Part shown: positions 2,858 to 21,986 of the stretch, one piece after another
Layout: every line of letters begins with the position of its first letter
How positions within the stretch are numbered: the stretch's first letter is position 1
Virus record (IMG/VR): IMGVR_UViG_3300042520_000071
Coordinates: 1 to 21,986 of that record
DNA: 21,986 bases
From: a virus
Direction: 5' to 3' (one strand)
Notes under the pieces: model-generated
Seen by the model: the letters and a program-made list of their open reading frames with translations, nothing else
What the model was told of the DNA's origin: nothing
Database searches by the model: none
Position numbers and translations under genes: made by a program

Positions 2858-3028
2858 ATGTATAAAGAAATTATCCAAGATAGTCCTTATGGCAAACCTT
2901 CTAAATTTATCATTCGTGATAATGGTGATGGTTCTTTTACATCATTCTTAGCACAAGAAGATAACGAATTTTATAAAGCCTACCTAAAATGGCTTGAAGA
3001 AGGTAACACCCCAGAGGCTGCTGAGTAA
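2858..3028 (+). CDS. Small fibre-locus protein (56 aa)
   Basis: A 56-codon ORF beginning MYKEIIQDSPYGKPSKFIIR, with an acidic C-terminal helix (FYKAYLKWLEEGNTPEAAE). An in-frame ATG at 2843 lies inside the preceding gene; 2858 is preferred because it follows the preceding stop by one base and has GCGGA upstream. The central IIRDNGDGSFTSF followed by a helix resembles other small phage proteins that follow fibre genes. The stop overlaps the start of the repeat protein (TAATG at 3026-3030). The function is unknown; an assembly or partner role for the 372-aa protein is inferred from the repeated 'large fibre gene plus small gene' layout here. Confidence 0.6.
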   Translation: MYKEIIQDSPYGKPSKFIIRDNGDGSFTSFLAQEDNEFYKAYLKWLEEGNTPEAAE

Positions 3029-3732
3029 TGTTTGCAGAATCACCGTATGCAGGGTCGCCATTTGCTTCGCTAGGTGTTGCTGCTGACGTATCTATAACGG
3101 TAGTAGGTGTTTCTGCGGTAGGGGTAGTAGGCACAGTTGATGTCGTAACAGACCAAAATATTGATGTAACAGGCGTAAATGCCGTAGGTCAGGTAGGGAC
3201 TGTAAGTGTTGTTGCTGAAGCTAATGTAGCGTTAACGGGTATTAATACCCCTTGCCTAGTTGGTAATGTAGACGTTAAAGCCGATGCGGTCGTTGACCTG
3301 ACTGGGGTGTACGCTGTAGGGCGTATAGGTAACGTAACTGTACAGGCTGGTGCAGAAATAACAGTTACTGGGGTTTATGCGGTAGGGCGCCTTGGAAACG
3401 TAACGGTTACAGGTAACGTTGTAGTTAATTTGACGGGCGTTAAGGCAGTAGGCAGAATAGGCAACGTAGAGATTTCTGGCGGTGCAACAGTATTTGTTAC
3501 TGGCACCCAAGCAATAGGTCGGATCGGCAATGTCACGGTATTTGGTAATGCTACGGTAAACGTGACAGGCGTCAAGGCTGTTGTTAAACTTAAGGTCGTA
3601 AACGTTTGGGGTGACATTAACACAGATCAGACTCCAAATTGGCAAGATATTAACCCAGTGCAGGTATCGGCATGGAGCGAAATTACCCCTAGCCAAACAC
3701 CAAACTGGACTGATGTATTAGTACCAAATTAA
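3028..3732 (+). CDS. 22-residue-repeat virion appendage protein (234 aa)
   Basis: A structural protein built almost entirely of repeats. After a short leader (MFAESPYAGSPFASLG), residues 23-176 form seven consecutive 22-residue units, with a partial eighth to residue 185. The consensus is roughly VxVTGVxAVGRIGNVTV followed by five variable residues. The units are regular beta-strand/turn patterns, which fits a beta-solenoid or intertwined fibre shaft (inference). The tail (about 194-230) has a second motif, QTPNWQDI and QTPNWTDV in the spaced pattern W-x2-I...PNW-x2-I. No membrane or catalytic motif is visible. One copy of the same 22-residue unit ends the 113-aa protein at 10321-10662. The start overlaps the previous stop. 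Confidence 0.7.
   Translation: MFAESPYAGSPFASLGVAADVSITVVGVSAVGVVGTVDVVTDQNIDVTGVNAVGQVGTVSVVAEANVALTGINTPCLVGNVDVKADAVVDLTGVYAVGRIGNVTVQAGAEITVTGVYAVGRLGNVTVTGNVVVNLTGVKAVGRIGNVEISGGATVFVTGTQAIGRIGNVTVFGNATVNVTGVKAVVKLKVVNVWGDINTDQTPNWQDINPVQVSAWSEITPSQTPNWTDVLVPN
3094..3582 (+). repeat. Tandem 66-bp coding repeats (22-residue units)
   Basis: Seven full 66-base units and one partial unit, in frame, encode the TGVxAVGRIGNVTV repeat. The DNA copies have diverged at synonymous and some amino-acid positions while the length stays exactly 22 codons, so the array looks old and held by protein structure rather than freshly expanded. Confidence 0.85.
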
Positions 3733-7150: not shown

Positions 7151-7635
7151 TGTTTACCCTAATATCTACAGCGCTGTCCTTCCTCATGGGGGGTCTGCCT
7201 AAACTACTGGACTTCTTCCAAGACAAGGCAGATAAAAAGCACGAATTAGAACTAGCCAAGATGCAAACGGAGAGAGAACTCCAGATGCTAGAGAGAGGTT
7301 ATATAGCCCAAGCCCGTATCGAAGAGATCAGGACAGAACAAGTCCAGATGGAGACTCAAGCCCAAGAACGCACCGCCATGTACAACCACGATATAGAAAT
7401 CGGTAAAGGTGCAAGCCAATGGATCATTAACCTACGAGCCTCTGTACGCCCTGTCGTAACCTACCTATTTGTTTTCCTATTAATCATTGTAGATGTAGCG
7501 TCTATCTGGTGGGCATGGTCTAGCGGTGTAGCGTTTGCCGAGGCTATTCCAATGGTGTTTGATGCAGATGAGATGCAGATTTTGGCGTCCATTATTGCTT
7601 TCTGGTTCGGGACTCAGGCATTTAGTAAGAAATGA
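7150..7635 (+). CDS. GTA-type three-helix holin (161 aa)
   Basis: Matches the layout of the GTA_holin_3TM family. There is an N-terminal hydrophobic helix (about 2-20), a long charged helical linker (about 25-90: DKKHELELAKMQTERELQML), a second helix beginning with the typical ASVRPVVTYLFVF pattern (about 97-122) and a third helix near the C-terminus (about 142-158: MQILASIIAFWFGTQAFSKK). Holins form inner-membrane lesions that let endolysin reach the cell wall at a set time. The gene overlaps the lysozyme gene by ATGA at 7632-7635, the classical holin-endolysin pair. Confidence in the family is good. Whether a neighbouring membrane protein acts as antiholin is open. Confidence 0.85.
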   Translation: MFTLISTALSFLMGGLPKLLDFFQDKADKKHELELAKMQTERELQMLERGYIAQARIEEIRTEQVQMETQAQERTAMYNHDIEIGKGASQWIINLRASVRPVVTYLFVFLLIIVDVASIWWAWSSGVAFAEAIPMVFDADEMQILASIIAFWFGTQAFSKK

Positions 7636-8108
7636 AAGTAAGTGATAAAGCAATCAAAATGATTAAACACCACGAGGGTGTCCGTCAACGTCCATATCGC
7701 TGTCCCGCAAAATTGTGGACGATTGGTGTTGGGCATGTACTCTACCCACGGCAAGGTGCTTTAAAGATAGACGAGCGGGATGCCTACCCACTGGAGTACA
7801 AAGATGACCGTACCTTTTCGATGGAGGAAGTAGATGACATTCTTAGAGACGATCTTAATCGCTTTGAGCGAGGTGTTGAACGCTACTGTCCCGTTAAGCT
7901 CACTCAAGGTCAGTTCGATGCTCTTATATCTTTTAGCTTCAATATTGGTCTGGGAGCATTACAGCGCAGCACCCTCCGTCAAAAGGTTCTTCGGGGCGAA
8001 ATGGAAGGGGCGGCAGAAGAGTTCTTGAAATATACGCTGGCTGGCGGTAAAGTACTGAAAGGCTTAGTTACTCGTAGAAACGACGAACGAGCATTGTTCT
8101 TATCTTAG
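7632..8108 (+). CDS. GH24 lysozyme (endolysin, N-acetylmuramidase) (158 aa)
   Basis: Cleaves the beta-1,4 bond between N-acetylmuramic acid and N-acetylglucosamine in peptidoglycan. The catalytic signature E-8aa-(D/C)-5aa-T is present as E15 (in KHHEGVR), C24 (in PYRCPAK) and T30 (in LWTIGVGH). The nucleophile position is Cys rather than the Asp of T4 lysozyme, as in several phage muramidases. FDALISFSFNIGLGALQRST (about 96-115) and the C-terminal GLVTRRNDERALF are further family hallmarks. The length is typical and there is no signal peptide or SAR helix, so release depends on the holin encoded just upstream. The start overlaps the holin stop by ATGA. Confidence 0.95.
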   Translation: MKVSDKAIKMIKHHEGVRQRPYRCPAKLWTIGVGHVLYPRQGALKIDERDAYPLEYKDDRTFSMEEVDDILRDDLNRFERGVERYCPVKLTQGQFDALISFSFNIGLGALQRSTLRQKVLRGEMEGAAEEFLKYTLAGGKVLKGLVTRRNDERALFLS

Positions 8109-8119
8109 GGTAAACCCGT

Positions 8120-10321
8120 ATGCCATTACAAAAATTACAATTTAGGCCAGGTGTTAACAGAGAAAGTACTGACTACTCCAATGAGGGCGGTTGGTATGCC
8201 TGTGACAAGGTACGTTTTCGTTCTGGTTTTCCTGAAAAAATTGGTGGTTGGATTCGGCTATCTAATGAAACCTTTTTAGGTATTGCTCGTGCGCTGTGGA
8301 ACTGGGCTACTTTAAACGGTGCCAATTTACTGGGTGTTGGTACTAATCTTAAATACTATATTGAGCAAGGTGGTGACTATAACGATGTAACCCCAATTCG
8401 AGTTACTTTTACGGCAAATTCATCTCCAAACACAGTGAACTGCATTGCTACTACAAACGGTTCAAACGTTGTAACTGTAACTTTAACTGGTTACGGAGGT
8501 CTAACAAATGACTTTGTTACTGTAACGGGCGCTAACGCAATTGGATCAATTACTGCCGCAGATTTAAATCAAGAACACCAGATTACCTATATTGATACAA
8601 CCCAATTTAGTTTTACCGTAGCAAATGTAGCAAACTCTACTGGCTCTGGTGGTGGAAACACGATTACTATGGCGTTCCAAATACAAACGGGACTAGATGT
8701 TTTTATTCAGGGTACTGGCTGGGGTGCAGGCACATGGCCTACTTATATCCAAACTTCACTTACTGACCCATTTGCTTGTACAAGTCCTGGCACTAGCGTA
8801 ACTGTAACTCAGACTGCCCACGGTCTTTCTAACGGCAATTCGGTTTACTTTAACAGCATATCTGGTAACGTTTGCGGTATAGCGTCTACCCCATTTATTA
8901 AAGCGCTGCCAATTACTGTAGTGAACGCCAATGCTTATACCTTTTCAACGGTTATTGGTGGTAATACATACACTACTTCTAATAATGGCCCAACTGGTGG
9001 AACCGTTGTTGTTTCTACTCCTGTTGCTCCTGTACGGGGTTGGGGCGCTGCGGCGGATGTAGGTATTGGTCAGCAGTTACGCCTTTGGACAAATGATAAC
9101 TTTGGTGAAGACCTTCTTATTGCTCCTCGTGGTGGCGCTATTTATTATTGGGATGCCACTACAGGTATTAGCGTACGGGCACTTTTACTTAATACCGCAT
9201 CAACTAACGCAGGCTTTGCAGGGCAATTTGTACCCAACACAACCAATCAAATTATTGGTTCCTCAATTCAGCGTTTTGCTATTTGTTTTGGGGCTAACCC
9301 ATATGACCCTACTAATGCTAATACAACCTTTGATCCTCTTTTAGTACGTTGGTCAGACCAAGAAAACCCATTTGACTGGGTTCCAGCAGCTACTAACCAG
9401 TCAGGCGAATTCCGTCTCAATATTGGTTCTTTCATTATGTGTGCGGAATCTACACGTCAGGAGATTCTAGTTTGGTCTGATGCCGCTATTTATTCTATGC
9501 AGTATTTAGGACCGCCCTACGTCTGGGGCTTTCAGTTATTACAAGACAACATTTCTGTAATGGGGCCTAACGCTACTATTACTATTAACAACGTGACTTA
9601 TTGGATGGGCGTGGATAAATTCTTCTCATACACAGGTCGTGTAGAAACACTGCCGTGCACTCTGTGGAAATACGTATTTGAAGATATTAATATTGACCAA
9701 TCGTTTCAAGTATTTGCTGGTTCAAATGAACGGTACAGTGAAGTCTGGTGGTTCTACTGCTCAGAAAATAGCAATCAGATTGATAAGTACGTAATTTACA
9801 ACTACCTTGAGCGGGTTTGGTCGTATGGCACCATGAGTCGTACTGCATGGCTTGATTCCCCATTACGGCAATACCCGATGGCTGCGTACCCCGAAGGCAA
9901 TAAAATTTTGTTTCACGAAGCCAACGTAGATGACGTATCAGGGTTAACTCCAATACCGATTGAGGCGTTTATTCAGTCTTCGGATTTTGACATTGGTGAT
10001 GGACATAACTTTGGTTTTGTATGGCGCATCCTGCCAGACATTACGTTTAACGGCTCTAATGTAAATGAACCCAAGGTAGTAATGACCGTTCGCCCACGCA
10101 GAAACTCTGGTGCTCCTTACGGAATAGCGGATTCGCCCGATGTGCAAAGCGATCAAAACTATACAGGTCAACGCAATTATGACGTGCAGTTATTTGATGG
10201 ACAGGTATATACCAGACTTCGTGGACGCCAAATGGCATTTAGGATTACGTCTACCGACTTAGGCGTAGCTTGGCAGTTAGGTAGCCCACGGATTGATATA
10301 CGCAATGACGGAAGACGTTAA
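8120..10321 (+). CDS. Large tail/neck virion structural protein (733 aa)
   Basis: The opening MPLQKLQFRPGVNRESTDYS, NEGGWYACDKVRFRSGFPEK belongs to a structural protein type found in many podovirus-like environmental phages, occupying the place of a tail tubular or stabilisation protein. That functional analogy is inference. Two related beta modules are inserted in the first half: about 105-185 (NVVTVTLTGYGGLTNDFVTV to SFTVANVANSTGSGGG) and about 218-300 (TSVTVTQTAHGLSNGNSVYF to NAYTFSTVIGG). The second half (about 305-733) is rich in W/Y and beta strands (ENPFDWVPAATNQSGEFRLN). The start has only a weak TAGGG upstream, overlapping the lysozyme stop. The stop overlaps the next ATG (TAATG). 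Confidence 0.75.
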   Translation: MPLQKLQFRPGVNRESTDYSNEGGWYACDKVRFRSGFPEKIGGWIRLSNETFLGIARALWNWATLNGANLLGVGTNLKYYIEQGGDYNDVTPIRVTFTANSSPNTVNCIATTNGSNVVTVTLTGYGGLTNDFVTVTGANAIGSITAADLNQEHQITYIDTTQFSFTVANVANSTGSGGGNTITMAFQIQTGLDVFIQGTGWGAGTWPTYIQTSLTDPFACTSPGTSVTVTQTAHGLSNGNSVYFNSISGNVCGIASTPFIKALPITVVNANAYTFSTVIGGNTYTTSNNGPTGGTVVVSTPVAPVRGWGAAADVGIGQQLRLWTNDNFGEDLLIAPRGGAIYYWDATTGISVRALLLNTASTNAGFAGQFVPNTTNQIIGSSIQRFAICFGANPYDPTNANTTFDPLLVRWSDQENPFDWVPAATNQSGEFRLNIGSFIMCAESTRQEILVWSDAAIYSMQYLGPPYVWGFQLLQDNISVMGPNATITINNVTYWMGVDKFFSYTGRVETLPCTLWKYVFEDINIDQSFQVFAGSNERYSEVWWFYCSENSNQIDKYVIYNYLERVWSYGTMSRTAWLDSPLRQYPMAAYPEGNKILFHEANVDDVSGLTPIPIEAFIQSSDFDIGDGHNFGFVWRILPDITFNGSNVNEPKVVMTVRPRRNSGAPYGIADSPDVQSDQNYTGQRNYDVQLFDGQVYTRLRGRQMAFRITSTDLGVAWQLGSPRIDIRNDGRR

Positions 10322-10662
10322 TGGCTGTTACCCCACTCCGTCCTTCTAAAGCACCTAATTTATTAATTGCGCCTACAGAATATCAACAGCGCTACATAGA
10401 TCAACTTAATAACGCCTTACGCTTGTATTTCAATCAAATTGACAACTTTACTCAAAACGTAACAGTGCCCGCTTCAGGTACCACGGCAAATAGACCCACG
10501 GAAAATTTACAGGTTGGACAGTATTACTTTGATACAAGCCTTGGGTATCCAATCTATTGGAATGGTTCAGATTGGGTAAATGCCCTTGGAGAGCCTTTGA
10601 TTTTCTTAACAGGCGTAAAAACAATAGGAAGAGTTGGTACTGTAACGGTTACAACTGTCTGA
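10321..10662 (+). CDS. Small virion protein with one 22-residue-type repeat (113 aa)
   Basis: Three parts are visible. Residues about 15-50 form a helix (TEYQQRYIDQLNNALRLYFN), residues about 55-90 a compact module (ANRPTENLQVGQYYFDTS, YPIYWNGSDWVNALG), and residues 94-110 (IFLTGVKTIGRVGTVTV) match the repeat unit of the 234-aa appendage protein. The middle module is common in phage fibre and tail proteins where a short label or attachment region is needed. The gene is translationally coupled to the 733-aa structural gene. A linking role between the tail and the repeat-bearing appendage is inferred from the shared motif and is not proven. Confidence 0.7.
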   Translation: MAVTPLRPSKAPNLLIAPTEYQQRYIDQLNNALRLYFNQIDNFTQNVTVPASGTTANRPTENLQVGQYYFDTSLGYPIYWNGSDWVNALGEPLIFLTGVKTIGRVGTVTVTTV

Positions 10663-10708: not shown

Positions 10709-12411
10709 GCCATGCAGCAGCCCAACATTTAGCCTCCTATGGTCGTGGGGGTGACACCGAATTAGTCCATATGACTAAGGGTGAGATAAAAGGTCTTCAG
10801 GCTTTAGCTTTGGCGCACGGTGGTTCGCTCACAATTAACCCCAATACAGGTTTAGCAGAAGCGGGTTTCTTAAAAAGGCTTCTCCCTACATTAGCAGGTG
10901 CAGCCCTTGCGGCTACTGGCGTAGGTGCACCTATGGCGGCTTTGCTGGTTGGTGGTGGTTATGGTTTAGCCACGGGTAGTATTACTAAAGGTCTTATGGC
11001 TGGTTTAGGTGCTTTTGGGGGTGCTGGGTTAACTAGCAGTCTAGGGGCTTTAGGTGGAGAAGCTTTAGCAACTCAAGGGGGTGACGCTGCTTTAAATGCG
11101 TTTAACGAAACTCAACGACAAGCAGTTACATCAGGACTAGATGCAGCAACTTATACAGATCCTTTTTTAGGTTCAGTGCCGTCTGTGCCACCTCCTAGTG
11201 GTATTGAGTCAGCTCAAAATTACTTAAACGTACAAAATTTTCCTAAATTAACTCCAGAAACTTTACAGCAATATCAAAGTGCATTAAATGCCCCTGGCGC
11301 CGTTCCTACTGATGTTATTAGTGCCGCTGGTAGAGCTCAAGGTGCTATGGGGGCTACTACAACAGGTAATATAAGTAGAGGTATAGGAGAAGTATTTAGT
11401 AGCCCAAGCGCTGCTGGTTCGTTTGTTAAAGACAACGCTCTTACACTAGGTGGTGCACTTTTACCCGCCCTAACACAAGATCAAAAGCCACCTGCTGGTT
11501 ATACCGAGGATGAGTACGATAGGTATCTAAAAGGCTTCCGTATGAGCCCCAACTACCAAGCTTACGAGGCTCCAAGACCAAACCCATACTATCAAGCTCA
11601 ATATGCAGCCGAAGGCGGTATTATGCAATTACAAGGTGGTGGTGGTCCTGTAGAGCGTATGTCTATGATGAACACGGCTATGAACCCCCAAGGTGGTATG
11701 TACCCCCAGGGTATGATTGATAAGACCCAGTATGCCACCCCTACCCAGCGCCCAGTAAGTGCTGAATTAATGACGGAAACCCCCGCCTATGAGCGCTCTA
11801 GCCCAATGCTAATGGCAGCTGGTGGTATTGCTCGGTATAAAAGTAAGGGTCAGGTTAATGTGTTACAAGATTATATAAACCGACAAGAGCAACAACAAAT
11901 GAGTCATTTACCAGAAGGCGTTAGCATTCCCCGCACTGGTATTTTTAGAGATACTGACGTAGATACAGCAAGAAAAGATGCGCTGACTGCCGCTATGATT
12001 CGTTTAGGCAAAGCTGGTAAAGGTGCTGGTATTAAGCCTATAGCTCTCCCTAAGACTGCTATTAAGGGTCTAGGCGATATAAGCGGTATTTCTAAAGACA
12101 CTACCGAAGCCGCTGCTGGTGGCACTATGCGTTACAACCTAGGAGGTTATTCCGATGGTGGAAGAATGCTTAAAGGACCTGGGGATGGTATGTCTGATTC
12201 TATCCCTGCTTCTATTTCTGGAAAACAACCAGCACGGTTGGCTGATGGAGAGTTTGTTGTCCCGGCTGATGTTGTATCGCATTTAGGTAATGGCTCTACG
12301 GATGCTGGTGCTAAGAAGTTATACGGCATGATGGACAGAATTCGCAAAGCTCGTACTGGTAAAAAGAAACAAGCTCCTGCAGTTAAAACTGCTAGATATA
12401 TGCCCGCATGA
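10705..12411 (+). CDS. Glycine-rich internal virion protein (568 aa)
   Basis: Probable inner-virion/ejection protein. The N-terminus (SYGRGGDTELVHMTKGEIKG) is a pattern of this phage group. Residues about 57-120 are a hydrophobic, Gly/Ala-rich stretch (LPTLAGAALAATGVGAPMAA) suited to membrane insertion. The middle is disordered and rich in Pro, Gln and Tyr. Motifs of the form AxGG-I/T recur at about 303-307, 372-378 and 470-477. The last about 80 residues (GPGDGMSDSIPA, KQPARLADGEFVVPADVVSH, GAKKLYGMMDRIRKARTGKK) form a conserved C-terminal block ending in a basic tail. The start has GAGG at 10696-10699 with a five-base spacer. The stop overlaps the GNAT start by ATGA. Confidence 0.7.
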   Translation: MSHAAAQHLASYGRGGDTELVHMTKGEIKGLQALALAHGGSLTINPNTGLAEAGFLKRLLPTLAGAALAATGVGAPMAALLVGGGYGLATGSITKGLMAGLGAFGGAGLTSSLGALGGEALATQGGDAALNAFNETQRQAVTSGLDAATYTDPFLGSVPSVPPPSGIESAQNYLNVQNFPKLTPETLQQYQSALNAPGAVPTDVISAAGRAQGAMGATTTGNISRGIGEVFSSPSAAGSFVKDNALTLGGALLPALTQDQKPPAGYTEDEYDRYLKGFRMSPNYQAYEAPRPNPYYQAQYAAEGGIMQLQGGGGPVERMSMMNTAMNPQGGMYPQGMIDKTQYATPTQRPVSAELMTETPAYERSSPMLMAAGGIARYKSKGQVNVLQDYINRQEQQQMSHLPEGVSIPRTGIFRDTDVDTARKDALTAAMIRLGKAGKGAGIKPIALPKTAIKGLGDISGISKDTTEAAAGGTMRYNLGGYSDGGRMLKGPGDGMSDSIPASISGKQPARLADGEFVVPADVVSHLGNGSTDAGAKKLYGMMDRIRKARTGKKKQAPAVKTARYMPA

Positions 12412-12860
12412 CAACACTTGTATATGAAGACGTCAATGGGCTTGACTTTATACCAGAGTTTGAAAAATTATTTCCTGAGCATTATGATGAGTTATGTGTA
12501 ACAAAAGATTATCCTGCTAATCCAAACTACGATGCCTATAGGCAAATGGGGGAAGCAGGTTTATTAAGAACTATTATTTGTAGGGCGGATGGTGAATTAA
12601 TTGGATATATTATTTTTTACATCCAACCTCATTTACACTACAAAAATTGTTTGACGGCTTTTGAAGATTTATATTTTGTTAAAAAAGAATACAGAAAAGG
12701 TCGAGTAGGAATTAGGTTGTTTCAGTACGCTGAACAAGTTTTAAAAGAACGTGGAGTAAATAGGATTGTAATGCACACTAAAGTACATTTAGACAATTCT
12801 AAATTGTTTGAGTATTTAGGGTACAAACATACAGATAAAATATTTACTAAGATGTTGTAA
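12408..12860 (+). CDS. GNAT-family N-acetyltransferase (150 aa)
   Basis: Expected to transfer an acetyl group from acetyl-CoA to an amine on a protein or small molecule. The GNAT core is visible: strand 4 (AFEDLYFVKKEY), motif A (YRKGRVGIRLFQYAEQVLKE, about 95-114), then VNRIVMHTKV and motif B (NSKLFEYLGYKHTDKIFTKM). In motif A the usual Q/R-x-x-G-x-G/A is modified to R-K-G-R-V-G, a variant seen in phage-encoded members. The gene is visibly richer in A+T than its neighbours, which suggests separate acquisition. It sits inside the internal virion gene run, coupled by ATGA to the 568-aa gene, so the target may be a virion protein or a host protein met after injection. The target is unknown. Confidence 0.85.
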   Translation: MTTLVYEDVNGLDFIPEFEKLFPEHYDELCVTKDYPANPNYDAYRQMGEAGLLRTIICRADGELIGYIIFYIQPHLHYKNCLTAFEDLYFVKKEYRKGRVGIRLFQYAEQVLKERGVNRIVMHTKVHLDNSKLFEYLGYKHTDKIFTKML

Positions 12861-12869
12861 GGGAAAATT

Positions 12870-15800
12870 ATGAATTATTCACGCCGCCAGTTATATGCCC
12901 TAGGGGAACCCCTAGGAGATTCCGTTACCGTTAAAAAAGTTGGCGGTGGACGCATTTATGGCGGAGGTGGTGGCGGTGGCGGTGGACCCCAACAGTCAAC
13001 TACTTACAATACTAATCTCCCTGAGTATGCAAAACCGTACGTAACCACAATGCTGGGTGCTACCCAGAAACAATTATTTGAAGGCACTCCAACTGCAGAG
13101 GGTGGTTATGACATTACTGGGTTTAGAGGATATAAACCCTATAGTACTGATGTAAATAACTACTTTGCGGGCTTTAGCCCAATGCAACAACAAGCTCAAC
13201 AAGCTACTGGGCAGTTGCAAGTTCCAGGTCAATTTGGTCAAGCTTCTGGTTTAGCTGGTGCTGCTGGTATGGGCGCATTAAGCGCTGCGCAAGGAGCTGG
13301 AGCTTTAGGATCTGAAGCCCTTGGTTATGGTGCAACAGGGCAAATGTACGGCGGCATGGGTGCCCAACAAGCATTACAAAGAGCACAGCAAACTGGAAGA
13401 CAAGCTGGAATGTATGGCGGTATGGGTGCTGGCTATGGCGCTCAAGCTGCAGGAATGGCTCCAACTGCACAAGCCTATGGTCAACAAGCCGCTGACATCG
13501 GTATGGGTGGTCTTGGTTACGGCGCTCTTGGTTCTGGGTATGGCGCTGGCGCTGCTGGTTTAGCTCCCGTTGCTCAGACTTATGGTCAAGCAATGGCTGA
13601 TATTGGTGCCGCTGGTGGGGCTGGAGCAGGGGCCTTAGCAGGTGATGTGGCTCGTCAAGCTATGCGGTATGGTCAGCAAGGGGCTACGGCGGGTCGTCTT
13701 GGTTTACGGGCTGGCGAAGAAATGGGGGCAATTGGTTCTCAAGGTTTAGGGTATGGCGCTATGGGCGCTGGCTATGGTGGTCGTGGTGCTATGGCTGCTG
13801 AACAAGGTTTTGGTGCTGGCGAACAATTTGCCCGTCAAGCTACTGATCCGTATGCAACTCAAGCATATATGTCGCCTTACATGCAAAATGTAGTGGACTA
13901 TCAAAAATCTCAAGCATTGCGTGATTTTAATATTGGCCGAGGAATGCGTGGTGCCCAAGCTGTTGGTAAAGGCGCCTTTGGTGGTAGTCGTCAAGCTATT
14001 GTAGAAGCTGAAGCAGAACGTGCGTTAGGTAGCCAACTGCAAGGTATTGCTGCTACTGGATCACAAAAAGCATTTGAAGATGCCCAACGCCAACAACAGT
14101 TTGGGGCTAACCTAGGTTTACAAGGTTTACAGGCAGGATACGGCGGTCTTGGTTTAGGTATGCAAGGAGTTGGTCAAGGTTTAGCTGGTCTTGGTACTGC
14201 TATGCAAGGTCAACAGGGTCGTTTAGCTGGTCTGTCGGCATATCAACAAGGACTACAAGGTGCACAAGCTGGCTTAGGTCAAGCATTAGGTGCTGGTCAA
14301 TTAGGTCTATCAGGAACACAGCAGGCTTTGGCTGGGCAACAGGGTGCGCTATCATCTTTGGGTCAAGCGGGTCAACTTTATGGACTTGGTATGCAAGGTG
14401 CTGGTGTTGGATTATCAGGTCTTGGCACGGCTCTTCAAGGACAACAAGCCCGTATGGCTGGTTTAGGTCAAGCTGGTCAGTTTCTTGGACAAGGTATGCA
14501 AGGCGCAGGATATGGACTTCAAGGTGTGGGAGCTCAACAAGCTGCGGGTCAATTAGGGTTAGCAGGAACCGCACAGGGTATGCAAGGAGCACAAGCAGGT
14601 ATGCAAGGTGTTCAAGGGGCTATTGGTGCGGGGCAGTATGGGCTATCTGGTTTAGGTCAGGCTACACAGGCGGCTGGTGCTTTAGGTCAGTTAGGCGGTC
14701 AACAGCTTGGTGCACAAAGAGACATTATTGGTATGCAATCCCAAATGGGTAAAGAGCAACAAGCCCTTGAGCAAGCTAAGATTAATCAAGCTATTCAAGA
14801 CTACGCTACACAACAGCAGTACCCACTTATGCAGCTTGGCTTTATGTCAAACATGTTGCGTGGTCTACCCATGCAAGCAACTACTACGCAGTCTTATCAA
14901 GCTCAACCTTCAACGCTTAATCAAGGTCTTGGCGTTTTGGCTGGTGCGGCTGGTGCTAGACAAGCTGGTTTGTTTGCAGAGGGGGGAACTATCAGAGGCT
15001 TAGCCGCTGGTGGCGTTGCAGGCTACGCTAATAGAGGGATGGTTCAGGCTAATCCAGATAGCTCAGTAGTTCGTGGCATTCGTTCCAAATTAGAAATGAT
15101 GGGAGCTGACGAGTTAGCACGTGTTGCGCAAACTAGTCCTAGCGAAGAAATTCGTGCTATGGCAATACAGATACTACAAGAGCAAAAAATTAGAGAGCAA
15201 GCTGAAGCACAAGCCCAACAGTCTATTGCACAAGATCAACAACGTGGTCTACCCACTCCTGTTACGGAACGAGCTGGTCTACCTGCCGCACCTGCTGGGT
15301 CTATGGATATGCTAAATGCTGCCAGTGGTGGCATTGTAGCTTTTGCTGGTCCCGGTGGTAGCCAAGTAGACTTAGATGAGGACGAAGCAGATCGCCTACA
15401 AAAAGAATTTACTGCTCGTCAAAGATACGCAGAGTTTTTTAAACAACAGCGTGAAGATGCTGGTGTAGGTGTACCTAAAGCAAGTCTTGCTAATCTTTAC
15501 GCTAAACAACAGGCTGATTTAGCAGAAGATAGAAAACGTAAAGCCGGATATGACTTATTAAACTTTGGTCTTGAATTAGGCACTCAACCCGGTGGTTTAC
15601 TTCAAGCAGGGCTTCAAGCAGGAAAACGTGCATTGCCAGGAATGATTGCTCGTGAAGATACTCTTAGAGGGCGTGAAAGTGACATTGCTAAAGGTATGGC
15701 TGAAGTTGCTGAAGGTGAGCGCCTAATGAAGCTAGGTGATATTACTGGTGGCAATGCAATGTTTGAGAAAGCCGAAGATCGCTTTAGCAAAGAAAGAGTT

Positions 15801-16229
15801 GCAGGTACAAGAGCTTCTATAGCGGATAAAGCAGAAAACCATGCAAGAGCCTTTCTAGCAAACGCAAGAGCTAACAACGACAATAGACCTGAAGAAATTA
15901 TTCTTCTTGAGGGTAGAAATGACTACTTAACTAAAATGCAGCAAGCACAAATGGCACGTGTGGGCGTTGCAGGAGAACAAGTAGCTACTACTAAAGAAAC
16001 GCAGGCTGATAAAGAAATTAGAGAAAACAAAGATATTAGAGAGTGGCGTAGAGAACAGCGTCAATATAAAGCAGATGCGCCAGAACGTGCGGCGTTACAA
16101 CAAAAAATTGATGCCGAAAAAGAAAAGATTCGTACTAGATATGCAACAAAGGGTACAACTCCTGCTCCAAGTAAAGATAGCGCTGGAAAACCTGCTTTGC
16201 CCCCAGGATTTAAACCAGATAAAACTTAA
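12870..16229 (+). CDS. Gly/Gln/Ala-repeat internal virion protein (1119 aa)
   Basis: Probable ejection/internal virion protein. The N-terminus (SRRQLYALGEPLGDSVTVKK) is followed by nine glycines (31-39) and QQSTTYNTNLPEYAKPYVTT. Residues about 106-315 and 414-615 are low-complexity Gly/Gln/Ala-rich helical repeats (such as GLAGLGTAMQGQQGRLAGLS). They flank a conserved block (about 319-413: DPYATQAYMSPYMQNVVDYQ, GKGAFGGSRQAIVEAEAERA). After AKINQAIQDYATQQQYPLMQ (about 632-651) come AxGG-type motifs (about 703-719 and 818-825). A charged helical C-terminal third (about 845-1119) ends the protein. AAGGGA at 12859-12864 gives a five-base spacer. A palindrome lies in codons 10-16. Confidence 0.7.
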   Translation: MNYSRRQLYALGEPLGDSVTVKKVGGGRIYGGGGGGGGGPQQSTTYNTNLPEYAKPYVTTMLGATQKQLFEGTPTAEGGYDITGFRGYKPYSTDVNNYFAGFSPMQQQAQQATGQLQVPGQFGQASGLAGAAGMGALSAAQGAGALGSEALGYGATGQMYGGMGAQQALQRAQQTGRQAGMYGGMGAGYGAQAAGMAPTAQAYGQQAADIGMGGLGYGALGSGYGAGAAGLAPVAQTYGQAMADIGAAGGAGAGALAGDVARQAMRYGQQGATAGRLGLRAGEEMGAIGSQGLGYGAMGAGYGGRGAMAAEQGFGAGEQFARQATDPYATQAYMSPYMQNVVDYQKSQALRDFNIGRGMRGAQAVGKGAFGGSRQAIVEAEAERALGSQLQGIAATGSQKAFEDAQRQQQFGANLGLQGLQAGYGGLGLGMQGVGQGLAGLGTAMQGQQGRLAGLSAYQQGLQGAQAGLGQALGAGQLGLSGTQQALAGQQGALSSLGQAGQLYGLGMQGAGVGLSGLGTALQGQQARMAGLGQAGQFLGQGMQGAGYGLQGVGAQQAAGQLGLAGTAQGMQGAQAGMQGVQGAIGAGQYGLSGLGQATQAAGALGQLGGQQLGAQRDIIGMQSQMGKEQQALEQAKINQAIQDYATQQQYPLMQLGFMSNMLRGLPMQATTTQSYQAQPSTLNQGLGVLAGAAGARQAGLFAEGGTIRGLAAGGVAGYANRGMVQANPDSSVVRGIRSKLEMMGADELARVAQTSPSEEIRAMAIQILQEQKIREQAEAQAQQSIAQDQQRGLPTPVTERAGLPAAPAGSMDMLNAASGGIVAFAGPGGSQVDLDEDEADRLQKEFTARQRYAEFFKQQREDAGVGVPKASLANLYAKQQADLAEDRKRKAGYDLLNFGLELGTQPGGLLQAGLQAGKRALPGMIAREDTLRGRESDIAKGMAEVAEGERLMKLGDITGGNAMFEKAEDRFSKERVAGTRASIADKAENHARAFLANARANNDNRPEEIILLEGRNDYLTKMQQAQMARVGVAGEQVATTKETQADKEIRENKDIREWRREQRQYKADAPERAALQQKIDAEKEKIRTRYATKGTTPAPSKDSAGKPALPPGFKPDKT
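12899..12916 (+). other. Perfect inverted repeat near the gene start (possible mRNA hairpin)
   Basis: CCTAGGGG at 12899-12906 and CCCCTAGG at 12909-12916 are exact reverse complements around AA. In RNA this gives a 7-bp GC-rich stem with a four-base loop, 27-44 bases after the AUG of the 1119-aa gene. No U-tract follows, so it is not an intrinsic terminator. It could slow ribosomes or be chance. Confidence 0.5.
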
Positions 16230-16237
16230 ATATAACT

Positions 16238-19200
16238 ATGGCTTATGAAAGCGCTACTAACCCCAATACAGGGGAAAAGTTATTTCTTGTTGATAACAAG
16301 TGGGTACCACCTAGCGAAACAGCAACCAATCCTGAAACTGGACAACGTGCGTTTTTAATTAATAATGAATGGCAAGTTCTTGATGTGCCTAAAGCTGCTC
16401 CTAAAGCCGCCCCTACAGTAGCACCAGCAACAGAAGTTGCACCCATAATTAGTCCAGAAGAACAAACGGGAGTAGCGCCCCCTACCCCTGAACTTGTTGC
16501 TCCTACAGTTGCAGCACAACCTAAACCTCCATCTGAACTTGCTATGGGGCGTGAGTTTATAGAAAAAGGCATACCCTCTGGTGTCATTGGTGTTAAATCC
16601 ATGGCTACTGGAGTCAACCTTCTTAAAGATGCCAACTTTGTTGGTAGTGCAATTAAAAACCTTGATGTGTACAAACAGATTGATGAAGGAAAGATAACTT
16701 CTCTTGCTGATGCTGAAGGTCTTGGGCTACCAAAAGACCAAGTAAGAATGTATCTAGCTGCTAAATCTCCCGAAGCAAGGGAGCAAATGAAACAAAACCA
16801 GCAAGGCATCATTGACAAGCGCCAAGGATTTGTACAGGAGTCATTAGCTTTATTTAAACAATATCAAGCTGAGGCTGAAAAAGTTAAGGGTGTAACTCCT
16901 GACATTACAGATGTAAGTACGGTTAAAGACTTTGGGAACTGGCTTGCTTTTAACGTAGGTTCTGGCGTTGTGCAGCTTGCGCCTATTATGTTAGCCGCAG
17001 TAACTACAGGTACTCCAGGTGCACTGGCTCTTGGCACAGCCATGGGTGTAGGGGAAACCGTTGGTAATCGACTTGAGTTTATTCAAAACAAAGTTAAAGA
17101 TTTGCCTCCTGAACAGCAAGCAAATGAAATAGAAAAATACATTAGAGATACTTCTGACACTACAGTAGCAATTGGTTTAGCGTCTGGTGCGCTAGATATG
17201 TTTGGTCCTGTAGGTTCTATTCTACGTGCTAGAGCAGGTAAAGAAGGTGTTAAGTACCTTACTAAAAAAGAAGGACTAAAAGCAGGTATTAAAGGAGCGC
17301 CTAGAGACATTGTTGAAGAGGGTCTTACTGGTGGTGCGCAAGAAGCCGTTCAAATTGGTGGTAAACGTGTTTTAGGCGAGCAAACAGGGGACGTATTTTC
17401 AGAAGAAAACATTAAGGCAGTTATTAATGCCGCCGCTGCTGAGGCTGCTGGAGGTCTTGGTGGTACTACAATTAGTACAGGTTTGAAAGTAGCTCAAGGA
17501 CAATCTGAGATCTACAAAAAACGTGCGGCTGATAATGAGTACAAAGACGCCATGGCAACAGTGCTTGCAGATAAAGGGTTTAGCTTTGCACCGCCCGAAG
17601 TCCGGCAAGAGATTGAACAAGAGGCTACTAAATCTATTCTTGACTCTACCAAAGAGAATCTAGGTAATGTTGTTGATTCAATCAAAGAAAGAATAGCTCA
17701 ATTTGTTACACCTAAAACACCAGAGGCAGATGAATTTACAGCCTTGGTTACTCGTTATCGTGATTCAGGACTAACCTATGACGAAGCTTTAAACCAAGCT
17801 AAACAAGACTTTGTGGAGGCGGGACGTGGAGATCAATCAATTATCGGTGGAGCAGATCAACGAGGCATTTCTGTGCCTGGCAAACCAATCGAAACCGACA
17901 CGGGAGTTACTGACACTACCGGAGGAGACCTGGCAACAACTGGCACGACTACTACTACTGTTGGAGGCGGAGAAGGAACTGAACTCAGTGCATTAACACC
18001 TGCACAAGTTAGAAATCAAGCAAATACAGAAGCCCTTAATATATTTAATGTTCCTAAAACAGAAAATCCAGATGGAACTATTGCTTATGGTTTTGCTACA
18101 CCCGCAGTTCAAAAACAAATAAAAGCTTATTCTCTTGGTGCTTATGATGCCGCCCAAGGGTTTGATGGGGCTAAGTTTGCAGCAGACATGAAAGGCAAAG
18201 AAAAGAAAGCCTATGAAGACGGCTTTGCTTTTGGGCAACAAACAATTACGCTTAGTGTTCCAACTACTCTAGCCACTCCAACTGCTCCAACTGCTCCAAC
18301 TGCTCCAACTGCTCCAACTGCTCCAACTGCTCCAACTGCTTCAACTGCTCCAACTGCTCCAACTGCTCCAACTGCTCCAACTGCTCCAACTGCTCCAACT
18401 GCTTCAACTGCTCCAACTGCTCCAACTGCTCCAACCACTCTAACTACCCCAGTTACCCGTGGCAAACCTCGTGGTCGACCAAAAGCAGCCCTTACGGAAG
18501 CAGAAGCTGCTGCTAAAACTGCAGAACGTAGAGCTCAACAAGCCGCTGGTAAACAGGTTATACGCACTGCCGAGAAGTTACAGAAGATTAGTCAAGAGCA
18601 GTTTGATCCAACCAAGTTTGAAACTATAGAAGACCTTACTGAAGGTGAGAGAGACTTTAATGAGCGTCGTCGCCAAGCCCTAGAGGATGCGTATGCTCTA
18701 GCTGTTCAAGGTTCTACTAAAGAGAATAAAGCTGGCACTATTGGTCAGGCTATCCTAGATACCGCTACTCCACAGGAGCGTCAACTAGCTAAAGAACGCT
18801 ATGAACTACGTAGCAAGACTGCTCGCTCTGAGCTTTTAGAAGCTACAGATGGCAATGAGAACACTGTGTATACAGGTTTTAAAACCGCAGCTAATGCACT
18901 ATCTTGGCTAACTAAAAACGGTAACGTTTTTGAGCGCACTCTGGCTAGACGTTTGATGCCGTTTGTCCGCACGATGCGAGTTGTAATTGTCCGTTCTCCT
19001 GCGGATTTACCTAGCAACTATTTACGTTCGCAGTTTGAAGGCGCTGCTGGTATGTACTCCGAGGGGGTTATTTACCTAGCTGAAGACGGTGGCTTAAACA
19101 ATACTGTATTCCTACATGAGGCTTTACACGGTGCAACCATTGACCGTATTAACAAATATTTAGACGATGTAGAAGCAGGGCGTCAACCTGAAGAGTCTTT

Positions 19201-21986
19201 AGCTGAAGCCGTAGAACAACTTAATGCGGTTATGAAGAGTGCTGGCAGAATGTACACCGCACTACAAGCATTAGGTAAAACAGATGCTCGTGTAGACGCC
19301 TTAGCTAGAGCTAACGCATTTACTGATATTAAAGAATTTATAGCTTATGGTATGTCTAATCCAGCAATGCAAGAGTTTCTTTTGCAGTCTCCAGGGCAGA
19401 TAGTTGGAATTCAATCAACCATAATTGACAGGTTATTTACCCCGTTTGTGCAAGCCATTCGCAAGATGTTCAATATGGCGGAGAACTACGACTCAGCAAT
19501 GCAGGACCTTATTATCGTTACGGATAAGCTGTTATCTGCTAAGTTTACTCAACCCAAGGTTACTAGATCTGAAGCAGCGTTGGCTAAGAAACAAAATAAG
19601 AACATTGATACTGATCTAGAAAAGTTACGTTTATCTAAGTCGTCCACCGAGACCGAAAAGCTTGTTGGTGACATGATAAAGAACCATGGCTTTCAAGGTT
19701 TCTTAGATTTGCTAGAAGCAAGACGGGATGCATTAGGTAATGACTTTATTGCCAAACTAATATACAACCTACCCACATCAGATATTGTGCGTTGGGTAGG
19801 CGATGAGATACCAGCATTAGTTTCAACCGATCAAATGATGCAAGAAGTATCAGCCATGCGTATGAGGCTGATGACTGCCGTAGCTAAAAAAGCCGAAGCT
19901 CTAGCTAAGTTTACTAGCAAGAATGGTTCTGAAGCATTAAGTGATGCAATGCATTTGGCTCGTTTAAAGAAAGTTAGCCCTGCTAAATATCCTAATGCTA
20001 CAGAGTATGCAAAGAATGACCCCTTAGTCAAAAAATACGAAGCCATAATTGCTGACCCCAATACAGATCCTACTAAGCTACCCGCATTTAAAGGTCAGCT
20101 TACCCAACGTATTAACCAGATTAATGCCGTATACGATAAATGGGATGCCCTAGGTAAGCAAAAAGGTGGGCATGATATGTACAAAATGGTCCAAGAGTAT
20201 TACCAGGACATGTACAACTTAACCCGCAGACTCTTAGATGACCAGATTAACCAACTACCTATAGACGCTGCAGATAAAGCCAAGCTACTTAAGTCAGTGC
20301 GCATGATGCACGAGCGTAGCGTATCTAACAAAGAACCCGAAACCATAATTTTAGAAGATGGCACCGAGTCTATAGAAGCAACGTTTACGTCTTTGCCCGA
20401 AGACTACTTCCCATTTACCCGCCGTGGTCAATACTATTTAAACGTACAAGGACCAAAAGGACGGGAGTTCTATCTGTTTGAAAGCGGTGTAGATCGCAAT
20501 GCTTTTAAAGCCAAACGTGCCCGTGAATTGGGTGTAGATAAGAACGATAACAAAATCTTTAGTCAGGGTGATGACATCCGTGCCTTACGTGGCGCATTCC
20601 AAGGCGATAGCCAGATGCTCAAAGAAATGTTTGAGGCTATTGACGGAGCAGACACATCTAAACTAGCCCCAGGTAACGTAAATGCTTTTACGGAAGACTT
20701 AAAAGACCAGCTGTATCAAGTGTATTTGATGAGCATGCCTGAGCGTAGTTTCCGTAAACAGTTCTTACACGCTGAGAAAATTACTGGTTTTAGCTCTGAC
20801 ATTCTGCGTAACTTAAAAGATTCAGGTACTAAATACTCCAATCAGCTAGCTAAACTTAAGTACGGTAGCGCTTTGCGCAATGAAATACAACGTGCACGAG
20901 ATACTCTTGAAGGCATGCCATCTAATGAGCGGGGGCGCCTTGAGATATTTATAAACGAAATAGCTGCACGGGCTGAAGATGAGATTAATCCTCCTGAAGA
21001 TAGCCCTTGGGTTAATAAAATTAATCAGATTTCGTACTTAATGCTTCTAACCAGTGCTGCTACTGCTGCTGTGCAAATGCTAGCTGTGCCTAATATGGTT
21101 ATGCCAACCCTTAACGACCAGTATGGGTACGGTAAATCTGCTGCCAAACTTACTAAGTACATGGCATTGTGGAAGTCTATTGGTATTACTAATGTAGACC
21201 CAGATACTGGAGAAACTACTTATACAGCACCGTCTTTTGTATCGTCTGACATTGCACGTAGTAATGAAAACCTACGTCGTGCGTATCAATACGCTATAGA
21301 CAAGTACAACATGTTTAGCCTGACTAATACTTCGGTGTTAACAGGTGCAAACAAAACTCCTACTGCCGTTGGCGAAAGTGTGCTTCGTCGTACTGGGCAA
21401 ACAACATATCGCCTTATTACTGCTTTGTTAAATGGCTCTGAGCGTATTAGCCGTGAGATTACCTTTGGTATGAGTTTTGAGTTAGAGTTTGAAAAGACTG
21501 GTAACTTTGAAGAAGCAGTACAAAAAGCAGTTATAAATACTCAAGAACTACTAGGTCGATACGATGCACCACAGCGCCCCCGTAGCTGGCGTAATGCTGT
21601 AGGTAAAACAGTTTTACAATTTAAAACTTACTCCGCATTTATGAGTTCATGGTTTTTACGTAATGGTTACGCTGTTATTAATAAAGGATTGCTAGATGCT
21701 GAAGGTCGTTCAGCCGCACACAAACTAAGTCAAGTTATTTTAATGGGTGCCATATTCCACGGTTTAGTTGGGTCTCCTCTTTACGGCGTAATTACTAGTC
21801 TCATTAATTTATATGACTATCTCTTTGGCGATGAAGATGAGATGCGTAAACGCAGGCTTAATAACCCATTAACTGTATACGACTCAGATATGCGTTTCCG
21901 TTATGAGTTTTTACGAGATACTTTTGGGCATATTCCATTTCCTGGATTAGACGGAAGGGATCATAGCCTTAACGAAGTATTAGAGA
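16238..21986 (+). CDS. Giant polyvalent ejection protein with HExxH metallopeptidase motif (partial, at least 1916 aa)
   Basis: The frame is open from ATG at 16238 to the window edge, so the 3' end is missing. Order of parts: two 23-residue repeats (TNPNTGEKLFLVDNKW and TNPETGQRAFLINNEW, 7-45); a Pro/Ala-rich linker (about 50-100); hydrophobic Gly/Ala helices (about 233-275, 310-330 and 394-416) suited to membrane entry; 17 Pro-Thr-Ala triplets (681-731, two with Ser for Pro); an AT-hook-like KPRGRPK (743-749); and a zinc metallopeptidase motif LHEALHG (H960, E961, H964) with E1033 in KEFIAYG as possible third ligand. Long helical regions follow, and hydrophobic segments at about 1600-1626 and 1834-1865. 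Size, position and multidomain layout fit phage polyvalent proteins injected with DNA. No clear Shine-Dalgarno is seen. Peptidase activity is inferred from the motif only. Confidence 0.8.
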   Translation, partial: MAYESATNPNTGEKLFLVDNKWVPPSETATNPETGQRAFLINNEWQVLDVPKAAPKAAPTVAPATEVAPIISPEEQTGVAPPTPELVAPTVAAQPKPPSELAMGREFIEKGIPSGVIGVKSMATGVNLLKDANFVGSAIKNLDVYKQIDEGKITSLADAEGLGLPKDQVRMYLAAKSPEAREQMKQNQQGIIDKRQGFVQESLALFKQYQAEAEKVKGVTPDITDVSTVKDFGNWLAFNVGSGVVQLAPIMLAAVTTGTPGALALGTAMGVGETVGNRLEFIQNKVKDLPPEQQANEIEKYIRDTSDTTVAIGLASGALDMFGPVGSILRARAGKEGVKYLTKKEGLKAGIKGAPRDIVEEGLTGGAQEAVQIGGKRVLGEQTGDVFSEENIKAVINAAAAEAAGGLGGTTISTGLKVAQGQSEIYKKRAADNEYKDAMATVLADKGFSFAPPEVRQEIEQEATKSILDSTKENLGNVVDSIKERIAQFVTPKTPEADEFTALVTRYRDSGLTYDEALNQAKQDFVEAGRGDQSIIGGADQRGISVPGKPIETDTGVTDTTGGDLATTGTTTTTVGGGEGTELSALTPAQVRNQANTEALNIFNVPKTENPDGTIAYGFATPAVQKQIKAYSLGAYDAAQGFDGAKFAADMKGKEKKAYEDGFAFGQQTITLSVPTTLATPTAPTAPTAPTAPTAPTAPTASTAPTAPTAPTAPTAPTAPTASTAPTAPTAPTTLTTPVTRGKPRGRPKAALTEAEAAAKTAERRAQQAAGKQVIRTAEKLQKISQEQFDPTKFETIEDLTEGERDFNERRRQALEDAYALAVQGSTKENKAGTIGQAILDTATPQERQLAKERYELRSKTARSELLEATDGNENTVYTGFKTAANALSWLTKNGNVFERTLARRLMPFVRTMRVVIVRSPADLPSNYLRSQFEGAAGMYSEGVIYLAEDGGLNNTVFLHEALHGATIDRINKYLDDVEAGRQPEESLAEAVEQLNAVMKSAGRMYTALQALGKTDARVDALARANAFTDIKEFIAYGMSNPAMQEFLLQSPGQIVGIQSTIIDRLFTPFVQAIRKMFNMAENYDSAMQDLIIVTDKLLSAKFTQPKVTRSEAALAKKQNKNIDTDLEKLRLSKSSTETEKLVGDMIKNHGFQGFLDLLEARRDALGNDFIAKLIYNLPTSDIVRWVGDEIPALVSTDQMMQEVSAMRMRLMTAVAKKAEALAKFTSKNGSEALSDAMHLARLKKVSPAKYPNATEYAKNDPLVKKYEAIIADPNTDPTKLPAFKGQLTQRINQINAVYDKWDALGKQKGGHDMYKMVQEYYQDMYNLTRRLLDDQINQLPIDAADKAKLLKSVRMMHERSVSNKEPETIILEDGTESIEATFTSLPEDYFPFTRRGQYYLNVQGPKGREFYLFESGVDRNAFKAKRARELGVDKNDNKIFSQGDDIRALRGAFQGDSQMLKEMFEAIDGADTSKLAPGNVNAFTEDLKDQLYQVYLMSMPERSFRKQFLHAEKITGFSSDILRNLKDSGTKYSNQLAKLKYGSALRNEIQRARDTLEGMPSNERGRLEIFINEIAARAEDEINPPEDSPWVNKINQISYLMLLTSAATAAVQMLAVPNMVMPTLNDQYGYGKSAAKLTKYMALWKSIGITNVDPDTGETTYTAPSFVSSDIARSNENLRRAYQYAIDKYNMFSLTNTSVLTGANKTPTAVGESVLRRTGQTTYRLITALLNGSERISREITFGMSFELEFEKTGNFEEAVQKAVINTQELLGRYDAPQRPRSWRNAVGKTVLQFKTYSAFMSSWFLRNGYAVINKGLLDAEGRSAAHKLSQVILMGAIFHGLVGSPLYGVITSLINLYDYLFGDEDEMRKRRLNNPLTVYDSDMRFRYEFLRDTFGHIPFPGLDGRDHSLNEVLE
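18278..18430 (+). repeat. 9-bp minisatellite encoding a Pro-Thr-Ala linker (17 units)
   Basis: Seventeen in-frame units of CCAACTGCT, 153 bases with almost no other variation. Units 8 (18341) and 15 (18404) start TCA instead of CCA. These two variant units are 63 bases apart, so the array shows a seven-unit higher-order period from duplication of a block. It encodes residues 681-731 of the giant protein. Such arrays change length by slippage. Confidence 0.95.

What the first reader, a model, noticed from the sequence alone, without database searches (positions are those of the whole stretch)
16238..21986. Giant ejection protein carries an HExxH metallopeptidase site
The reading frame runs unbroken for at least 1916 codons and ends only at the window edge. 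Residues 957-965 (VFLHEALHG) give an HExxH zinc-binding helix, with E1033 in a following KEFIAYG helix as a possible third ligand. T7-type ejection proteins carry a lytic transglycosylase for wall penetration. Here the only enzyme-like motif seen is a peptidase, which could cut peptidoglycan cross-links, host defence proteins or the virion proteins themselves.
Basis: partly seen in the sequence, partly recalled or inferred. Interest (0 to 1): 0.65.

Follow-up and report, generated by a model that had tools for sequence, protein, structure and literature searches.

The report
Metallopeptidase domain in giant ejection protein
A giant phage protein that is probably injected into the host with the DNA really does carry a complete zinc-peptidase site, but it is the same metallopeptidase domain already described in the giant injected RNA polymerase of phage N4 and in other 'polyvalent' phage proteins, found here in an uncultured phage lineage with a different arrangement of domains.

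Summary
One ORF opens at 16238 and runs 1916 codons to the contig edge; a 93%-identical relative has the complete gene (1984 aa; by alignment about 229 residues are missing here). HExxH is at 960-964 and E1033 lies in KEFIAYG. Both are invariant: E in 84/84 relatives found by an HExxH pattern, HExxH in 79/79 found without it, and both in 15/15 distant isolate-phage hits. An AlphaFold2 model (pLDDT 87.5) puts HExxH on one helix and E1033 on a later one; its best structural match is the C1 domain of N4 virion RNA polymerase (Z 8.8), then anthrax lethal factor and PPEP. The domain alone hits PHROG 2206 (virion RNA polymerase) at E 1.9e-18. This is the zincin-like MPTase of phage polyvalent proteins, predicted in 2017. 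The rest of the protein carries LPD39 and PLxRFG regions whose model resembles T7 gp16 (suggestive only); no transglycosylase was found. A new member of a known kind. Most likely it cuts the giant protein itself, or host proteins, after ejection; peptidoglycan is an unlikely substrate. New details: the family spans podovirus lineages, and the conserved MPTase-body unit carries swapped modules.

The parts
16238..21986 (+). giant ejection/polyvalent protein ORF, 1916 codons, truncated at the window edge (complete length about 2,145 aa by comparison with L004)
18800..19594 (+). zincin-like metallopeptidase (MPTase) domain, residues 855-1119 (modelled fragment)
   Evidence: AF2 pLDDT 87.5; N4 vRNAP C1 Z 8.8; PHROG 2206 E 1.9e-18; hhalign
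19115..19129 (+). HEALH (HExxH) residues 960-964, two predicted zinc ligands and the catalytic Glu
19331..19351 (+). KEFIAYG residues 1032-1038; E1033 predicted third ligand
18278..18457 (+). TAP-rich low-complexity linker (about residues 681-740)
   Evidence: sequence
18458..18484 (+). RGKPRGRPK AT-hook-like element about 217 residues before H960
   Evidence: 32 of 50 relatives have such a core, 2.4 expected
19751..20293 (+). LPD39-like region (residues 1172-1352)
   Evidence: Pfam PF18858 E 2.7e-5, 24.4 bits, just below the cut-off of 27; relatives L005 and L085 pass
20402..21841 (+). PLxRFG / DarB-like C-terminal region (residues 1389-1868); model of 1140-1916 resembles the T7 gp16 body
   Evidence: NCBIfam NF032893 180 bits, cut-off 100; PHROGs
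12870..16229 (+). adjacent 1119-aa ORF, position of a gp15-type ejection protein; no profile match
8120..10321 (+). virion structural protein (phrog_3287), upstream of the large-ORF cluster
7632..8108 (+). phage lysozyme (endolysin), a separate muralytic gene
   Evidence: Pfam PF00959 E 4.4e-38

Best explanation
Residues about 855-1119 are a zinc-dependent endopeptidase domain, the zincin-like MPTase of phage polyvalent proteins, homologous to domain C1 of N4 virion RNA polymerase. H960, H964 and E1033 bind the metal and E961 activates water. It sits just before a large helical C-terminal body (LPD39 + PLxRFG) that is probably the part packaged in the capsid and ejected like T7 gp16. Shown here: homology, motif invariance, fold class, domain order. 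Inferred: packaging and ejection, zinc binding, catalysis. Most likely mechanism (about 0.5, against about 0.3 for host targets): after ejection and refolding in the host, the peptidase cuts the giant chain itself at linkers, separating the variable N-terminal module from the ejection body.
For: Catalytic residues are the only common core: in 13 divergent proteins the six invariant columns are H, E, H, T, E, Q. E is kept in 84/84 relatives chosen by HExxH, HExxH in 79/79 chosen without it (one more is cut by its contig edge), both in 15/15 phage hits found by plain tblastn. Homology to the N4-type domain: PHROG 2206 E 1.9e-18, hhalign 98% with LUZ7 vRNAP and 99% with a phiKMV-type internal virion protein. 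Fold: N4 vRNAP 2124-2351 Z 8.8, then M34 metallopeptidases. Virion context: solved internal virion protein 9sfn_G E 2.7e-23 from the environmental profile alone. Modularity: MPTase and body align in 54-58 of 62 full-length relatives, residues 1-660 in at most 27; ART-PolyVal directly before the MPTase in L037. Autoprocessing was proposed for this family on other grounds (PMC5512222).
Against: No cleavage site or substrate was identified. N4 vRNAP, with the same domain, is packaged unprocessed (PMC5512222), and the N4 cryo-EM preprint reports no degradation and no peptidase activity. No metal or geometry was measured. Foldseek alone gave no PDB match below E 0.001. Packaging of this particular protein is not shown.
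Confidence: 0.65

Rival explanations
1. The MPTase is itself an effector: after ejection it cuts specific host proteins (defence or regulatory).
For: Nearest cellular folds are M34 endopeptidases that cut proteins in trans; the domain sits among effector-type modules such as ART in relatives; proposed as an alternative in PMC5512222.
Against: Near-universal presence in ejection/vRNAP proteins across hosts suggests a general step rather than one host target; no target known.
Confidence: 0.3
2. The peptidase processes the giant protein or other virion proteins before or during packaging.
For: P1 DdrB is processed before packaging and has a C-terminal MPTase (PMC5512222).
Against: N4 vRNAP is packaged full-length with the same domain (PMC5512222).
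Confidence: 0.12
3. The peptidase cuts peptidoglycan cross-links and replaces the missing transglycosylase.
For: No SLT domain found in this protein, whereas relatives L007 and L008 have SLT plus the MPTase.
Against: SLT and MPTase coexist in L007 (L008 SLT just below cut-off), and phiKMV has the lysozyme in the neighbouring gp36, so the MPTase is no substitute; known peptidoglycan metallopeptidases use other folds (M15, M23; general knowledge); the same domain lies in vRNAP, whose work is in the cytoplasm.
Confidence: 0.04
4. The HExxH site holds a metal but does not cut peptides (for example an alpha-ketoglutarate HExxH oxygenase) or is only structural.
For: 8s5f, an alphaKG-HExxH domain, is a weak fold match (Z 3.3); the N4 preprint cites such enzymes for the motif.
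Against: M34 peptidases match better (Z up to 5.9); the general-base Glu of HExxH is invariant.
Confidence: 0.07

Closest known systems
N4 virion RNA polymerase gp50, domain C1 (MPTase; PDB 9PNR/9PNT residues 2124-2375) and PHROG 2206
   Same: Same domain by sequence profile (E 1.9e-18) and fold (Z 8.8); HExxH plus Glu; giant ejected protein
   Different: No RNA polymerase module detected here; the region after the domain shows no detectable relation to the corresponding region of N4-like vRNAPs
phiKMV gp37 / internal virion proteins of PHROG 342 (PDB 9sfn_G)
   Same: Same HExxH domain followed by a large C-terminal body; virion core protein
   Different: 1337 aa against about 2,145; C-terminal bodies share only a short colinear motif by profile comparison
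Polyvalent proteins with MPTase, LPD39, ART (Iyer et al. 2017, PMC5512222)
   Same: MPTase, LPD39 and, in a relative, ART-PolyVal in one chain; phage-type
   Different: Lineage from environmental contigs, with AT-hook-like element and, in some relatives, GHKL ATPase plus second HExxH insert
M34 peptidases (anthrax lethal factor, PPEP-1/3)
   Same: Fold of the peptidase core (Z 4.2-5.9)
   Different: 70-85 residues from first His to the predicted third-ligand Glu in this family; no sequence relation detected

Membership tests
Zincin-like MPTase of polyvalent proteins | HExxH on the first conserved C-terminal helix | tested here: met
   model helix 101-125 holds HExxH at 106-110; invariant
Zincin-like MPTase of polyvalent proteins | Glu on a following helix as third ligand | tested here: met
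   E1033 in helix 177-186 of the model; invariant in all relatives; metal geometry itself not measured
Zincin-like MPTase of polyvalent proteins | three-stranded sheet with a preceding helix | tested here: met
   strands 60-64, 84-87, 90-94 after helices 30-40 and 43-56
Zincin-like MPTase of polyvalent proteins | embedded in a large multi-domain phage protein with LPDs | tested here: met
   LPD39-like and PLxRFG regions; ART-PolyVal in L037; LPD39 in the window itself is just below Pfam's cut-off
Zincin-like MPTase of polyvalent proteins | zinc binding and proteolysis | not testable with these tools
   needs biochemistry
N4-type virion RNA polymerase | single-subunit RNA polymerase module before the MPTase | tested here: not met
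   no RNAP profile match in the whole protein or its pieces; so the domain is homologous but the protein is not filed as a vRNAP
T7 gp16-type ejection protein | N-terminal lytic transglycosylase | tested here: not met
   no SLT in P0001 or its pieces; not essential in the wider family, as phiKMV has its lysozyme in gp36
T7 gp16-type ejection protein | C-terminal helical body fold | tested here: inconclusive
   top rows T7 and E1004 core proteins and PhiM1 TEP, Z 5.3-6.3 on a helical model; weak profile link
T7 gp16-type ejection protein | packaged in the capsid and ejected | not testable with these tools
   only by homology: 9sfn_G, phiKMV gp37
PLxRFG domain protein (NF032893) | score above NCBI's cut-off | tested here: met
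   180 bits, cut-off 100
Peptidase family M34 | M34 fold and sequence signature | tested here: inconclusive
   fold Z 4.2-5.9; no sequence match to M34 chains in the PDB search

The most novel reading that the evidence does not exclude
The conserved MPTase plus ejection body is a general self-cleaving delivery chassis in short-tailed phages: a fixed C-terminal unit ejects, refolds and releases interchangeable modules (ADP-ribosyltransferase, GHKL ATPase with a second metallopeptidase, AT-hook DNA-binding segments), in the manner of polymorphic toxins, and the siphophage DarB/PLxRFG C-termini are the same gp16-like ejection body.
Probability: 0.2. Interest if true: 0.65.

Novelty: new member of a known kind. 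Interest (0 to 1): 0.35.

Why it matters
It shows that the N4-type metallopeptidase domain is shared, with intact catalytic residues, by ejection proteins of at least three podovirus groups (Schitoviridae vRNAP, phiKMV- and pradovirus-type internal virion proteins, and this uncultured lineage with a 60-kb relative). Such conservation argues for a common proteolytic step at infection; no demonstration of one was found in the papers searched. It can be tested in laboratory phages such as N4 or phiKMV by changing one residue.

Tried and rejected
Pfam and PDB sequence searches with the whole protein gave only chance or low-complexity matches, the PDB ones mostly to the TAP repeat, and the whole-protein PHROG scan missed the vRNAP family that the domain alone hits, perhaps because of the repeat. 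Plasmids: no match. Genome contigs: no relative, so no prophage or host. Profile comparison of the C-terminal body with the corresponding region of N4-like vRNAPs (LUZ7, MIF8): nothing. With phiKMV-type bodies: only a short colinear motif. Foldseek alone against PDB: no E below 0.001. A tree of the domain puts the environmental clade together (98/98) but its deep order is unresolved and has long branches. Hydropathy: only marginal hydrophobic stretches at 237-255 and 1833-1852, no case for membrane helices. No cleavage site was found or searched for systematically. Papers describing peptidase activity of such a domain in an ejection protein: none found in the library; non-open papers are not covered.

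Full report
What is there. The ORF starts at 16238 and stays open for 1916 codons to the edge of the record, which is itself the whole IMG/VR entry. Relative L004 has the complete gene, 1984 aa, of which residues 564-1755 match window residues 726-1916 at 87% identity; about 229 C-terminal residues are missing from the window. Shuffled sequence of the same composition gives an HExxH in 0.3% of trials.

Is the site real? Three samples were taken with different biases. (a) 13 proteins from environmental and isolate phages, 12 of them 19-92% identical to the window domain: the only invariant columns are H960, E961, H964, T967, E1033 and Q1045. (b) A scan of 2.9 million viral contigs with a pattern that holds HExxH but not E1033: all 84 relatives keep the Glu of xEFxxYG. 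(c) A scan with patterns from the downstream half only: all 79 relatives with enough upstream sequence keep HExxH; the eightieth is cut by its contig edge. In addition, 15 isolate-phage places picked from plain tblastn lists, spanning Schitoviridae and Autographiviridae, all keep both.

What fold? AlphaFold2 with 60 sequences gives pLDDT 87.5 and pTM 0.82; HExxH lies inside helix 101-125 and E1033 (model 179) in helix 177-186, after a sheet of three short strands. The tools give no coordinates, so the metal geometry was not measured. The closest solved structure is N4 vRNAP gp50 residues 2124-2351 (Z 8.8, rmsd 4.2, 180 aligned), then anthrax lethal factor (Z up to 5.9) and the Pro-Pro endopeptidases PPEP-1 and PPEP-3 (Z 4.2-4.8), which are zinc endopeptidases; an alphaKG-HExxH oxygenase is far weaker at Z 3.3. 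Foldseek on its own was not significant against PDB, but against viral models it finds a phiKMV-type internal core protein and a vRNAP at E 3e-7 and 1e-6. Sequence agrees independently: the domain alone hits PHROG 2206, virion RNA polymerase, at E 1.9e-18 over model positions 1989-2261; hhalign gives 98% to LUZ7 vRNAP and 99% to a phiKMV-type protein; the environmental profile hits the solved internal virion protein 9sfn_G at E 2.7e-23.

What protein? After the MPTase come an LPD39-like region (window 24.4 bits, cut-off 27; passes in L005 and L085) and a PLxRFG region (NF032893, 180 bits, cut-off 100) shared with DarB-like proteins of other phages with genomes around 60 kb. A model of residues 1140-1916 (pLDDT 76.8, pTM 0.72) has T7 gp16 (9jyy, 7eyb), phage E1004 core protein and the PhiM1 tetrameric ejection protein among its top five structural rows, Z 5.3-6.3. 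That is suggestive for an ejection-protein body, not proof; Z of this size is common for helical models. No transglycosylase or RNA polymerase was found anywhere in the protein. Genome context of the 60-kb relative: TerL, portal, major head protein, then the large structural cluster, with helicase and DNA polymerase on the other strand.

Architecture. Among 62 full-length relatives the MPTase and body align in 54-58, while residues 1-660 align in at most 27. Relatives carry an ADP-ribosyltransferase (ART-PolyVal, E 2e-13) immediately before the MPTase (L037), or a GHKL-type ATPase with a second HExxH before or after it (L006, L048, L085; the ATPase matches are below Pfam's cut-offs). An AT-hook-like GRP core precedes the MPTase in 32 of 50 relatives against 2.4 expected, mostly 215-257 residues before the first His.

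How it most likely works. The domain is a metallopeptidase of the polyvalent-protein MPTase class. Iyer et al. 2017 (PMC5512222) described this class, placed N4 vRNAP residues 2130-2448 in it, described the HExxH plus helix-2 Glu site, and proposed autoprocessing before packaging, in the head or in the host, or attack on host proteins. The N4 structure preprint (PMC12633501) confirms a separate C1 domain with a conserved HExxH; the passages found give no function for it. Because N4 vRNAP is packaged uncut, I favour cleavage after ejection: the chain refolds in the host and the peptidase separates the variable N-terminal module from the ejection body. Attack on host proteins is the main rival. 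Peptidoglycan is unlikely: L007 has both SLT and this domain, phiKMV keeps its lysozyme in gp36 next to gp37, and the same domain sits in a cytoplasmic RNA polymerase.

Verdict. A correct and well-read observation. The domain and its proposed role are already described for N4 vRNAP and polyvalent proteins; this is a new member in an uncultured phage lineage, with useful evidence that the catalytic residues are under strict constraint across podovirus groups.

Noticed in passing
window 18458-18484 and 32 of 50 relatives: AT-hook-like RGKPRGRPK about 217 residues before the HExxH; similar cores at similar offsets in most relatives, 2.4 expected by shuffling.
   Followed up: partly
L006 residues about 1150-1760, L048 about 1000-1640, L085; also L060, L077, L086, L087, L089, L090: Second HExxH (HELAH/HEMAH type) about 750-850 residues after the first (before it in L048); where scanned (L006, L048, L085) it goes with a GHKL/HATPase-like domain (below Pfam cut-offs): a possible ATPase-peptidase module inside an ejected protein.
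   Followed up: partly
L037 residues 986-1092 of the giant ORF: ART-PolyVal ADP-ribosyltransferase directly before the metallopeptidase.
   Followed up: partly
window 12408-12860: GNAT acetyltransferase gene between the structural genes; Rhizobium phage RHph_TM29 also has an N-acyltransferase gene upstream of its giant ORFs.
   Followed up: no
window 3028-3732 and 10321-10662: Repeated VTGVxAVGRIGNVTV-like motifs in a 234-aa protein, with a single similar ending (VKTIGRVGTVTV) in a 113-aa protein 7 kb away.
   Followed up: no
L183 (Vibrio phage phi 1) and L190 (PG11): Second HExxH about 235 residues after the first in these vRNAPs.
   Followed up: no
window 16238-21986 relatives: No relative of the domain's downstream half in genomes of 84,980 prokaryote species, so the lineage may be lytic and its host is unknown.
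   Followed up: no
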